A DNA stretch of 64,000 nt. It comes from Rikenella microfusus. Lineage in GTDB: Bacteria > Bacteroidota > Bacteroidia > Bacteroidales > Tenuifilaceae. The stretch is taken from the NCBI GenBank assembly GCA_020722565.1, contig DYKO01000004.1, positions 1 to 64,000 on the forward strand, read 5' to 3'. Below, one piece after another: positions 46,988 through 49,813 of the stretch. How positions within the stretch are numbered: the stretch's first letter is position 1; each line of letters starts with the position of its first letter. A program made the translations under genes and the position numbers. Below the pieces are notes generated by a model. That model ran no database searches. It worked only from the letters and a program-made list of their open reading frames with translations, and was not told the DNA's origin.

Positions 46988-47833
46988 ATGGCTGATATAG
47001 ATTTTTTAAAGAAAATGGCGGCACAGGTTCGCCGCGATGTTATTCGTATGGTTCATAAGCCCGCCAGTGGGCATCCCGGAGGCTCGTTGGGCTGTGCCGA
47101 TTTTTTCACTGCCCTTTACTTTGATGTGCTCAACATCAACCCACAAAACTTTAGCATGGATGGCATTGGCGAGGATATTTTCTTTTTATCAAACGGACAC
47201 CTTTCGGCTGCTTGGTACAGCGTACTGGCCCGCAGGGGATATTTCGATAAATCAGAACTTTCAACATTTCGCCTAATTAACTCACGACTGCAAGGTCATC
47301 CCACTCCTGCCGAGCATCTGCCTGGAGTAAGGATTGCATCGGGCTCGCTGGGGCAGGGGCTTTCTGTAGCCTGCGGAGCAGCTCTTGCCAAAAAACTTAA
47401 TGGCGATAAGAATCTGGTTTACTCGCTCCACGGCGATGGTGAGTTGCAAGAGGGTCAAATCTGGGAGGCTGCCCTTTTTGCCGCAGCAAAAAAGATTGAT
47501 AACCTGATTGCCACCATCGACTATAACGGCAGGCAAATTGATGGTCCAGTGGACAAAGTGATTTCACTTGGCAATTTAAAAGCAAAGTGGTTAGCCTTTG
47601 GCTGGGAGGTATTGGAAACCAACGGAAATGAAATGGAAAAGCTTTTGACCACACTGGCCGAGGCCAAAGCAAAAACCGAAAATGGGAAACCTGTAGTAAT
47701 ACTCATGCAAACTGAAATGGGCATGGGAGTCGATTTCATGATGGGTACCCACAAGTGGCATGGTAAAGCACCCAACGAAGAGGAATTTTCGCGGGCTATG
47801 GCTCAACTTCCCGAAGCCATTGGGGATTTTTAG
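46988..47833 (+). CDS. transketolase, N-terminal (TPP-binding) subunit
   Basis: This 281-residue thiamine-diphosphate-binding half of transketolase has KPASGHPGGSLGCADF, the GDG...N motif (HGDGELQEGQIWEAALFA then IDYNGRQIDG) and MGMGVDFMMG. The pyrimidine-binding half is the separate gene at 48301. In between lies a methylglyoxal-synthase-like gene. Split transketolases act as alpha2beta2-like assemblies in the non-oxidative pentose phosphate pathway. Confidence 0.94.
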   Translation: MADIDFLKKMAAQVRRDVIRMVHKPASGHPGGSLGCADFFTALYFDVLNINPQNFSMDGIGEDIFFLSNGHLSAAWYSVLARRGYFDKSELSTFRLINSRLQGHPTPAEHLPGVRIASGSLGQGLSVACGAALAKKLNGDKNLVYSLHGDGELQEGQIWEAALFAAAKKIDNLIATIDYNGRQIDGPVDKVISLGNLKAKWLAFGWEVLETNGNEMEKLLTTLAEAKAKTENGKPVVILMQTEMGMGVDFMMGTHKWHGKAPNEEEFSRAMAQLPEAIGDF

Positions 47834-47869
47834 AAAGTTTTTAAGGTATCAACATAAAATTGTATAAAA

Positions 47870-48271
47870 ATGCAGAACATTGCCCTAATTGCTCACGATG
47901 CCAAAAAACCTGAACTGGCAAGGTTTTTAAAAGGGCACGAGGATTGGCTTCCTGGCGTTAATCTGCTAGCAACCGGTCGTACCGCGGAGTTTCTCGAAGA
48001 ACAGGGCATCAAATGCCGCCATCTTAGCCCCGGGGTTTCTGGTGGTTACATTGAGATTACCAATATGATTGAGCGTGGCGAGGTGGATATCGTAATCTTT
48101 TTGCGCGACCACAAGGTGGTTCAGCCACATCACGAGGATATCCGCAGGCTACTTGAGGCATGCAACATAAAAAACATCCCCCTTGCCACAAACCAAGCCA
48201 CCGCCGAACTTGTTATTTTAGGTCTGATTCGCAAAGAGGCCATTGAGCGCATGAAACGAAATGCTGAATAA
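47870..48271 (+). CDS. methylglyoxal-synthase-like protein lacking the catalytic Asp
   Basis: This 133-residue MGS-fold protein has His9 and Lys12/13 in AHDAKK, phosphate-loop TGRT (35-38), His87 and Asp90 (PHHED) and the end motif [14 protein letters not shown]. In methylglyoxal synthase the catalytic Asp lies in SGPLGGDQQ. Here the matching segment is [10 protein letters not shown], with Tyr60 in the Asp position. It probably still binds a triose phosphate or phosphate but may not make methylglyoxal. It sits between the two transketolase subunit genes (gaps 36 and 29 bases), suggesting a regulatory or substrate-sensing role. Automated annotation would call it mgsA. Confidence 0.85.
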
Positions 48272-48300: not shown

Positions 48301-49251
48301 ATGCTATTTACCTCATCAGGAAATAAGGATACCCGCTCAGGATTTGGCGCGGGCTTACACGAACTCGGACGTCATAATCCTAATGTTGTGGCACTTTGTG
48401 CCGATCTGGTTGGCTCCCTAAAAATGGACGATTTCATTAAGGAAAACCCCGAACGGTTCTTTCAGGTTGGAATTGCTGAAGCCAATATGATTGGCTTGGC
48501 TGCAGGGCTTACCATTGGGGGAAAAATTCCTTTTGCCGGTACTTTTGCAGCCTTTGCCACTGGCCGTGTTTACGACCAAATCCGCCAAAGTGTAGCCTAC
48601 TCCAATAAAAACGTTAAAATTTGCGCATCGCATGCCGGTTTAACCCTTGGCGAGGATGGCGCTACGCACCAAATGCTTGAAGACATCGGGCTTATGAAGA
48701 TGCTGCCCAACATGACCGTTGTTGTTCCGTGCGACTATAACCAGACCAAGGCTGCAACTCTTGCCATTGCAGATTACTACGGACCGGTTTACCTAAGGTT
48801 TGGCCGTCCGGCAGTTCCCAACTTCACCCCAGCCAACCAAAAATTTGAAATAGGAAAGGCTCAGCTTCTTAAAGAGGGAAAGCAGGTAAGCATATTTGCC
48901 ACAGGCCATATGGTTTGGAAGGCATTGCTTGCAGCCGATATACTTGAGCAACAGGGAGTCGATGCCGAGGTCATCAACATACACACCATCAAACCCCTCG
49001 ACACCGAGGCCATACTCAAATCCGTAAGCAAAACCCAAGGTGCCGTAACCGCCGAGGAGCACATGATGAACGGTGGAATGGGCGATAGTATCGCTCAGCT
49101 GTTGGCACGTAAGTTACCCACTCCAATTGAGATGGTTGCCGTTAACGATGTTTTTGGCGAAAGCGGCACCCCCGACGACCTAATGGTAAAATACGGATTG
49201 GACACGCCAAATATTGTGGACGCAGCACTTAAGGTATTGGCACGTAAGTAA
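48301..49251 (+). CDS. transketolase, C-terminal (pyrimidine-binding) subunit
   Basis: This 316-residue protein has the transketolase PYR domain: [15 protein letters not shown] with its catalytic Glu, [38 protein letters not shown] and [12 protein letters not shown]-terminal swivel domain follows ([26 protein letters not shown]). It completes the enzyme begun at 46988. The sigma-factor gene starts 13 bases after its stop. Confidence 0.94.
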
Positions 49252-49264
49252 TCCGTAACACCCT

Positions 49265-49813
49265 ATGAGTCAACTTTCCGACAGTGAACTGCTCAAAATG
49301 TTTCGGAACCCCGATACGAAACATTACGCATTCAACCTGTTGGTCAGAAAGTACCAGGAGCGGCTCTACTGGCATATTCGTAAAATTGTTATCAGCCACG
49401 ATGATGCCGATGATGTAATCCAAAACACACTTATGAAGGTTTGGGGGGGATTAGAAACTTTTCGCGAGGACTCGCAAATTTTCACATGGCTTTACCGTAT
49501 TGCCACCAACGAGGCGCTTACGTTTCTTAAAAAGAAACGAACCCGTTTCCTATTGCCCTTGGGCGATGTTGAGCAACAACTCATGCGCACCCTCGAAAGC
49601 GACCCATTCATCGATGGTGATGCCACCCAGTTAAAGTTACAAAAGGCAATACTGCAGCTGCCCGAAAAACAGAGGCTGGTGTTCAATATGAAGTATTTTG
49701 AGGAAATGAAGTATGAGGAGATGTCAGAAATTTTGGGTACATCGGTTGGAGCACTAAAGGCATCGTTTCATCATGCCGTTAAAAAAATTGAAAAATTAAT
49801 GGAGGAGGATTAA
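49265..49813 (+). CDS. ECF-type RNA polymerase sigma factor
   Basis: This 182-residue protein has sigma region 2 (FNLLVRKYQERLYWHIRKI, DDADDVIQNTLMKVW, FTWLYRIATNEAL) and region 4 (LQLPEKQRLVFNMKYFEEM, YEEMSEILGTSVGALKASFHHAVKKI). It starts 13 bases after the transketolase gene, so it may be read from that promoter as well as its own. A membrane protein gene of the size expected for an anti-sigma factor follows. Confidence 0.93.
   Translation: MSQLSDSELLKMFRNPDTKHYAFNLLVRKYQERLYWHIRKIVISHDDADDVIQNTLMKVWGGLETFREDSQIFTWLYRIATNEALTFLKKKRTRFLLPLGDVEQQLMRTLESDPFIDGDATQLKLQKAILQLPEKQRLVFNMKYFEEMKYEEMSEILGTSVGALKASFHHAVKKIEKLMEED

What the first reader, a model, noticed from the sequence alone, without database searches (positions are those of the whole stretch)
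47870..48271. Methylglyoxal-synthase-like protein without its catalytic Asp, wedged between two transketolase halves
The protein keeps the phosphate-binding TGRT, His9, His87 and Asp90 of methylglyoxal synthase, but the GGD that carries the catalytic base is GGY (Tyr60). Its gene separates transketolase N and C subunits by 36 and 29 bases, so it is probably made together with them. A triose-phosphate-binding pseudoenzyme that tunes or senses transketolase flux is an attractive hypothesis. MGS folds already act as regulatory domains, for example in carbamoyl-phosphate synthetase.
Basis: partly seen in the sequence, partly recalled or inferred. Interest (0 to 1): 0.72.

Follow-up and report, generated by a model that had tools for sequence, protein, structure and literature searches.

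The report
Sugar-phosphate protein lacking its catalytic aspartate
A small protein descended from the enzyme that makes methylglyoxal has, throughout a branch of the Bacteroidota, swapped its catalytic aspartate for an unchanging tyrosine, and its gene usually sits among sugar-burning genes, so it is probably a sensor or a new enzyme of central metabolism that databases misname.

Summary
Window 47870-48271 encodes a 133-aa MGS-domain protein with GGY (Tyr60) where methylglyoxal synthase (MGS) has GGD, 36 and 29 bases from two transketolase (TK) halves. The genome also has an ordinary GGD MgsA elsewhere. All 133 aligned sequences are GGY (75) or GGD (58), and these are exactly the two sides of one tree branch (100/100). 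GGY was found only in Bacteroidota. More than one residue changed: E. coli Ser65, Pro67 and Arg107 (58 of 58 in GGD) are kept in 0, 0 and 1 of 75 GGY, the phosphate pocket in 74 of 75, and new near-invariants appear (W26, R37, H51, H88). A TK-specific role is not supported. TK often exists without GGY, GGY exists without this TK, and other lineages carry a VWA gene in the same slot. But 61 of 68 GGY loci (5 of 53 GGD) lie beside TK, PFK, GAPDH, TIM, a sugar kinase or a beta-phosphoglucomutase-like gene. Best reading: it no longer makes methylglyoxal and binds a sugar phosphate as a regulator of central carbon flux. An enzyme with new chemistry is the main rival. Function is untested.

The parts
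47870..48271 (+). GGY-type MGS-fold protein, 133 aa
   Evidence: model pLDDT 90.5, best structural matches are MGS enzymes, Z up to 19.9
47972..47983 (+). phosphate-binding loop T35-G36-R37-T38 (canonical T-G-T-T)
   Evidence: T35 75 of 75, R37 71 of 75 GGY; Thr at this place in 51 of 58 GGD
48047..48049 (+). Tyr60 codon, at the place of catalytic Asp71 of E. coli MgsA
   Evidence: Tyr in every row of the clade (75), Asp in every row outside it (58)
48128..48139 (+). H87-H88-E89-D90, at the place of E. coli H98 to D101; H88 is specific to the GGY family
   Evidence: H88 72 of 75 GGY; E or D at this place in 57 of 58 GGD
46988..47833 (+). transketolase N-terminal (ThDP-binding) subunit, upstream neighbour
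   Evidence: 36-base gap
48301..49251 (+). transketolase C-terminal subunit, downstream neighbour
   Evidence: 29-base gap
49265..49813 (+). ECF-type sigma factor-like gene that follows TKC in most TK-linked relatives (named by inspection; not put through a family search)
   Evidence: recurring order TKN-GGY-TKC-ECF

Best explanation
The gene encodes a member of a daughter family of methylglyoxal synthase found here only in Bacteroidota. SHOWN: the family is one branch of the tree. The catalytic Asp is Tyr in every member. Ser65, Pro67 and (but for one row) Arg107 of the canonical enzyme are also gone, while the Lys/Thr/Gly phosphate pocket and His9 are kept, and new near-invariant residues (W26, R37, H51, H88) mark a remodelled site. 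The gene is usually co-directional with sugar-phosphate enzymes: TK halves in Bacteroidales; PFK, GAPDH, sugar kinase, beta-phosphoglucomutase-like and GH65 genes in Flavobacteriales and related groups. INFERRED: it no longer eliminates phosphate from DHAP. It keeps the MGS fold, and probably the oligomer, as a receptor for an anionic sugar phosphate, with Arg37 and His88 adding positive charge where the catalytic carboxylate was lost. Ligand occupancy would tune the co-encoded enzymes or flux through upper glycolysis and the non-oxidative pentose phosphate pathway, much as the MGS domain of carbamoyl-phosphate synthetase acts in cis (recalled). The ligand and the partner are not known.
For: Alignment of 75 GGY and 58 GGD sequences. 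Tree with a single split, 100/100, 100% of 200 bootstrap trees. D71 is the proton-abstracting base, and K23, S65 and T45-G49 bind the phosphate (PMC7843640, passages read). Context 61 of 68 against 5 of 53. PFK/GAPDH/kinase gene runs. The host also has a canonical GGD MgsA, so methylglyoxal formation is covered there. Two members (L222, L223) have lost R37, H87, H88 and D90 as well, yet keep Y60 and the same gene run: further loss of catalytic residues without loss of the gene. GGY is intact in a MAG whose adjacent TKN is a remnant and whose TKC is gone. Low dN with dS beyond computation suggests purifying selection.
Against: No ligand, binding or regulation was shown in anything I found. The new residues are almost invariant, which fits a new active site as well as a binding site. 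D80, H87 and D90 are all kept in 59 of 75, more than a pure binding protein needs. 7 of 68 loci have none of the tested genes within 4 kb. The loci are related by descent, so the context counts are not independent. Co-transcription is not shown, and a terminator-like stem lies at the end of TKN. 11 of 18 GGY genomes examined show no other short MgsA, so residual MGS activity there cannot be argued away by redundancy.
Confidence: 0.47

Rival explanations
1. It is an enzyme with new chemistry on a sugar phosphate (for example an isomerisation, epimerisation or other enediol step) in which Tyr60, His88, His9 and Asp90 form the new active site.
For: In the GGY clade Y60 is fixed (75), H9 is 75 of 75, H88 72 of 75, D90 73 of 75: constraint as tight as in an enzyme. 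PurH, of the same fold, is an enzyme without that Asp (recalled; fold similarity Z about 8-10.5). Position among catabolic enzymes.
Against: L222 and L223 lose R37, H88 and D90 but keep the gene run. No metabolic step is evidently missing in what I tested: 18 of 19 GGY genomes have an ordinary TIM; other steps were not tested. No substrate can be named.
Confidence: 0.28
2. It is a subunit, scaffold or chaperone specific to the split transketolase.
For: 47 of 68 GGY loci have TKN or TKC within 4 kb on the same strand. The TKN-GGY gap, between match ends, is 17-59 bases in 43 of 46. 23 of 25 GGY genomes in the order sample have the split TKC, against 165 of 368 others.
Against: TK exists without GGY in most TKC-bearing genomes of the sample. 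GGY exists without this TK in 8 of 18 chosen genomes. A VWA gene takes the same slot in other lineages, and TKN and TKC can lie 31-34 bases apart with nothing between. GGY is intact beside a decayed TK in one MAG.
Confidence: 0.1
3. It still makes methylglyoxal, using another base, and is an ordinary MgsA with a tolerated change.
For: NCBIfam PRK05234 calls it methylglyoxal synthase over its cut-off (110.1 against 84 bits). D80, H87 and D90 are kept in the window protein. 11 of 18 GGY genomes examined have no other short MgsA. A GGD MgsA can hold the same place beside PFK, GAPDH or a kinase (L228, L229, L233).
Against: D71 is the base that takes the proton from DHAP (PMC7843640). Ser65, Pro67 and Arg107 are lost as well. 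TIGR00160 scores below its cut-off (99.4 against 146.9).
Confidence: 0.08
4. It is an inactive partner subunit that joins canonical MgsA in a mixed hexamer and tunes methylglyoxal output.
For: In L150, L152, L156 and L159 a GGY gene is followed directly by a GGD paralogue with an altered phosphate loop. The window's host also has a GGD MgsA.
Against: 11 of 18 GGY genomes examined show no short GGD MgsA (judged by ORF length and place), so the partner cannot be general; most of these are MAG records whose completeness was not told.
Confidence: 0.05

Closest known systems
Methylglyoxal synthase MgsA (EC 4.2.3.3; PF02142, TIGR00160, PRK05234)
   Same: Fold (Z 16.6-19.9 to solved MGS), length, His19, Lys23, Thr45, Thr48, Gly66, Gly69-Gly70; in the window protein also Asp91, His98 and Asp101.
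   Different: Asp71 to Tyr, Ser65 to Pro, Pro67 to Val, Thr47 to Arg, Arg107 to Glu; separate clade; different gene neighbourhoods.
MGS-like regulatory domain of carbamoyl-phosphate synthetase
   Same: Same fold (Z 10-13.3); a non-catalytic ligand-binding role (recalled) that the hypothesis borrows.
   Different: A domain of a large enzyme with 17-19% identity; GGY proteins stand alone.
IMP cyclohydrolase domain of PurH/ATIC
   Same: Same superfamily fold (Z 8-10.5); an enzyme without the MGS catalytic Asp (recalled).
   Different: 14-23% identity, fused to a transformylase, purine substrate (recalled).
Bacillus subtilis MgsA under control of Crh
   Same: Links an MGS-fold protein to carbon-flux regulation (seen only as a reference title; the paper is not held).
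   Different: There MgsA is the regulated enzyme, not the regulator.

Membership tests
Methylglyoxal synthase (MgsA) | MGS fold | tested here: met
   PF02142; model against 1wo8 Z 19.9, 124 aligned, rmsd 1.9, 37% identity
Methylglyoxal synthase (MgsA) | catalytic Asp of GGD (E. coli D71) | tested here: not met
   Tyr in every row of the clade (75), Asp in every row outside it (58)
Methylglyoxal synthase (MgsA) | phosphate pocket K23, T45, T48, G66 with H19 | tested here: met
   H9, K13, T35, T/S38 and G55 kept together in 74 of 75; the one failure is an unread residue (X)
Methylglyoxal synthase (MgsA) | Ser65, Pro67, Arg107 (58 of 58 in GGD) | tested here: not met
   0, 0 and 1 of 75; P54, V56 and E96 in the window protein
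Methylglyoxal synthase (MgsA) | curated equivalog profiles | tested here: inconclusive
   PRK05234 over its cut-off (110.1 against 84), TIGR00160 under it (99.4 against 146.9)
Methylglyoxal synthase (MgsA) | DHAP to methylglyoxal plus phosphate | not testable with these tools
   needs an assay
CPSase regulatory MGS domain | fused to the carbamoyl-phosphate synthetase large subunit | tested here: not met
   free-standing 133-aa ORF; another MGS domain of the host lies in an open frame of 1087 aa, taken as CPSase
PurH / IMP cyclohydrolase | fused AICAR transformylase and PurH profile match | tested here: not met
   133 aa; no PurH model among the NCBIfam hits at E<=0.001
Transketolase-specific subunit | obligate association with TK genes | tested here: not met
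   GGY without this TKC in 8 of 18 chosen genomes; TKC in 188 of 393 genomes against GGY in 25 of 393
Pseudoenzyme / ligand-binding regulator | binds a phosphorylated metabolite without turnover | not testable with these tools
   pocket conservation only

The most novel reading that the evidence does not exclude
A previously unrecognised family of stand-alone sugar-phosphate sensors in Bacteroidota, built by converting methylglyoxal synthase into a receptor (Asp to Tyr, Thr to Arg). It has been moved between gene clusters so as to control glycolysis (PFK/GAPDH) in some lineages and the non-oxidative pentose phosphate pathway (transketolase) in others.
Probability: 0.4. Interest if true: 0.78.

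Novelty: new variant of a known kind. Interest (0 to 1): 0.58.

Why it matters
If it is a receptor, it gives a direct and testable handle on how Bacteroidota sense central-carbon flux. If it is an enzyme, it is a new reaction on the MGS fold. In either case NCBI's PRK05234 model names the window protein methylglyoxal synthase (over its cut-off), so methylglyoxal production is likely being predicted from genes that lack the catalytic base. The family also offers a clean natural comparison: one residue set fixed in 58 enzymes of the old type and another fixed in 75 descendants.

Tried and rejected
Rejected. (1) Sequencing error or a lone mutation: every one of 75 clade members has Tyr. (2) A TK-only partner: see the rivals. 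(3) Replacement of triosephosphate isomerase: TIM is present in 18 of 19 GGY genomes; the one miss, G428, is a 1.2-Mb record. (4) Phage or plasmid cargo: 21 phage and 64 plasmid records match, all below 60% identity. The 10 plasmid rows listed are annotated methylglyoxal synthase or carry no annotation there; the GGD site was not read in any of them. (5) A Bacteroidetes-type promoter pattern (recalled; TTTG-N-TANNTTTG) found 4 sites in the window against 4.2 expected, the nearest about 2.3 kb upstream of TKN. Sigma-70-like sites (15 against 11.4) and terminator-like stems (10 against 7.0) are near shuffled levels; among them are a stem at the end of TKN (47808-47826, with a T run) and a site at 47831-47860, which if real would speak against one transcript. 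(6) Literature: searches listed no paper on an Asp-less MGS paralogue or on this gene arrangement. I judged by titles and abstract starts; PMC5114307, which holds all the terms, was seen only in the listings. The library holds only open-licence PMC papers, so absence there proves little. Of papers I read only passages of PMC7843640 and PMC12070732 (T. forsythia MgsA). (7) No multimer or ligand model could be run and no model coordinates were available, so the pocket was judged from alignment only. (8) dS could not be computed, so there is no dN/dS ratio.

Limits and dropped rows. The GGY and GGD groups were defined by those very letters; what is informative is that no third type occurs and that the groups coincide with the two sides of one branch. 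That alignment keeps only open frames of 110-330 aa with an AHD/AHN motif, identical sequences once. In one search L220 was left out as the same gene as L151. Loci near contig ends, and L002, have short flanks. L098-L159 overlap at species level with loci; the context count uses only L098-L159, 5 class loci and the window. The scan used two motif patterns and kept the best 80 of 550, so diverged GGY members (such as L222) or ones outside Bacteroidota could be missed. Of weaker matches in the order sample I read 21, not all. The 18 genomes are a chosen set (16 without GGY beside an intact TK pair, 2 with).

Full report
CHECK OF THE OBSERVATION. The protein is PF02142, its flanks are the N and C halves of transketolase, and the model (pLDDT 90.5) matches solved methylglyoxal synthases best (Z 16.6-19.9). 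The window lies in a 2.84-Mb, 99.7%-complete genome. A same-family genome (G024) carries its GGY gene on a contig of 115,479 bases, the same length and place as in the Perlabentimonas gracilis contig behind L115; that species is of Tenuifilaceae, Bacteroidales. The genome has four MGS-domain places: a 1087-aa frame (taken as CPSase), a 520-aa frame (taken as PurH), a canonical 154-aa GGD MgsA, and this protein.

THE FAMILY. In the relatives sample 26 of 26 same-genus or same-family genomes besides the window's own have a strong GGY match. In an order sample of 393 genomes, 25 (the window's own included) have a member of at least 54% identity, and all 25 read GGY; the 21 weaker matches that I read (at most 44% identity) are all GGD. 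In a class sample of 395 genomes, 7 (own included) have a high-scoring member, all GGY; the 14 lower-scoring loci fetched are GGD. A scan of 84,980 species genomes, with two motif patterns and the best 80 of 550 kept, gave 62 GGY loci, all in records whose titles name Bacteroidota groups. The next 18 are GGD, one of them Saprospiraceae and the others outside Bacteroidota. One row printed as 'GGL' (L146) was a pattern artefact: the protein reads GGY.

SITE REMODELLING. All 133 distinct rows aligned are GGY (75) or GGD (58), with no third type. The groups were defined by those letters, so the informative fact is that they coincide with the two sides of one branch. By published roles, D71 is the base that takes the proton from DHAP, H19 steadies O3, H98 is auxiliary, K23, S65 and T45-G49 hold the phosphate, and G66-P67 cover the substrate (PMC7843640, passages). 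GGY proteins keep His9, Lys13, Thr35, Thr/Ser38 and Gly55 together in 74 of 75. They keep Ser65 in 0, Pro67 in 0 and Arg107 in 1 of 75, although all three are 58 of 58 in GGD. New near-invariants are W26 (74), R37 (71), H51 (73) and H88 (72 of 75) beside Y60. This looks like a coordinated change of the site, not decay. Against a simple reading, D80, H87 and D90 are still all present in 59 of 75. In L222 and L223, R37, H87, H88 and D90 are also gone while Tyr60 and the gene run remain.

ONE BRANCH. A maximum-likelihood tree of the 133 rows puts all GGY on one side of one branch (100/100, 100% of 200 bootstrap trees). Caveats: only 133 columns, several long branches, bootstrap not fully settled, root by midpoint, and the Tyr column itself was left in.

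NEIGHBOURHOODS. Of 68 GGY loci, 47 have TKN or TKC within 4 kb on the same strand, 13 PFK or GAPDH, 12 a sugar kinase or beta-phosphoglucomutase-like gene, 1 TIM; 61 have any of these and 7 have none (L119, L120, L144, L147, L148, L151, L155). Of 53 GGD loci, 5 have any. Fisher's p is 2e-20, but the loci share ancestry and some flanks are short, so it overstates the case. In Flavobacteriales and related groups there are two versions. One is PFK, GAPDH, BadF-like kinase, GGY, beta-phosphoglucomutase-like, GH65 (L218, L222, L223; L219 and L153 without GAPDH; L154 with the kinase and beta-phosphoglucomutase-like gene only; L221 with PFK and GAPDH only). The other is PFK, GAPDH, GGY, ROK kinase (L150, L152, L156-L159). 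An NrtR-like regulator gene on the other strand accompanies most of them. Pfam supports the names for L218 and, for ROK, L150 (the BadF match is under Pfam's cut-off; 'beta-phosphoglucomutase' and 'maltose phosphorylase' are inferred from the HAD and GH65 matches). Canonical GGD MgsA holds a comparable place in L228 (beside PFK), L229 (beside GAPDH and PFK) and L233 (after PFK, GAPDH and a BadF-like kinase), so GGY may have arisen in, or entered, a glycolytic gene cluster.

TRANSKETOLASE. The split TK is commoner than its link with GGY: 188 of 393 order genomes have TKC (E<=1e-80), 25 of 393 have GGY. I fetched 16 TK regions, 11 from genomes without GGY and 5 from genomes whose GGY lies elsewhere; none has GGY between the halves. 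Six have a VWA-domain gene between TKN and TKC, two have TKN directly followed by TKC (31 and 34 bases between match ends), two have VWA beside TKC with no TKN in the stretch, one has only short VWA fragments, and five have TKC without TKN or VWA. In one Bacteroidales lineage the order is TKN-GGY-VWA-TKC. In 8 of 18 chosen GGY genomes no orthologue of this TKC is found; most are MAG records whose completeness was not told. In the Great Salt Lake MAG (L144) the tail of TKN remains, TKC is gone and GGY is whole; assembly error cannot be excluded in a single MAG. Within the window's own family two rumen or omasum genomes depart from the pattern: TKN lies 447 bases away in L105 and was not found upstream in L106. 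Results for a TK link: 23 of 25 GGY genomes in the order sample have the split TKC against 165 of 368 others (Fisher p 3e-6, not corrected for kinship), and the TKN-GGY gap between match ends is 17-59 bases in 43 of 46 loci.

PARTNER SUBUNIT OF MgsA? By ORF length and place, 7 of 18 GGY genomes also have a short second MgsA-like gene and 11 do not, so a mixed hexamer cannot be the general function. The Flavobacteriales tandem (GGY plus a GGD paralogue with a TKSTS-type loop; L150, L152, L156, L159) remains an open special case.

MECHANISM. Best supported: a stand-alone MGS-fold protein that kept the phosphate pocket, lost the base and residues around it, gained Arg and His, and is encoded with sugar-phosphate enzymes. 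That fits a sugar-phosphate receptor. It fits a new enzyme almost as well. Shown: sequence, phylogeny, context. Inferred: loss of MGS activity (my estimate 0.85), sugar-phosphate binding (0.75), regulation rather than catalysis (0.47). Ligand, partner, oligomer and co-transcription are not shown.

VERDICT. A real, conserved and probably misnamed family, a new variant of a known fold family.

Noticed in passing
L122:8449-9831 and equivalents; L240, L243, L247, L248, L250, L251: A roughly 460-aa VWA-domain protein (PF00092) sits between the two transketolase halves in many Bacteroidota, with or without GGY. Why a VWA gene splits a transketolase gene pair is unexplained.
   Followed up: partly
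L150:8414-8779, L156:1959-2327, also L152 and L159: A short (121-122 aa) GGD MGS paralogue directly follows GGY; in L150 and L156 its phosphate loop reads TKSTS instead of TGTTG. The four lie on a long branch of their own (0.89). The two tandem paralogues have complementary site changes.
   Followed up: partly
L119:542-4709, L120:3851-7851: GGY lies directly upstream of what look like carotenoid genes (phytoene desaturase-like, synthase-like, hydroxylase-like, cyclase-like; names by inspection except the amine-oxidoreductase match).
   Followed up: no
L144:7735-8396: In one Great Salt Lake MAG the adjacent TKN is reduced to its C-terminal tail and TKC is missing, while GGY is intact.
   Followed up: partly
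G000:C31:12633-13559 (outside the window): The host has a second split-type TKC homologue, 49% identical, 323-aa frame.
   Followed up: no
L239, L241, L242, L244, L246, L252, L253, L254: TKC-containing regions in which no TKN was found within the fetched stretch: the two halves may be unlinked in several lineages.
   Followed up: no
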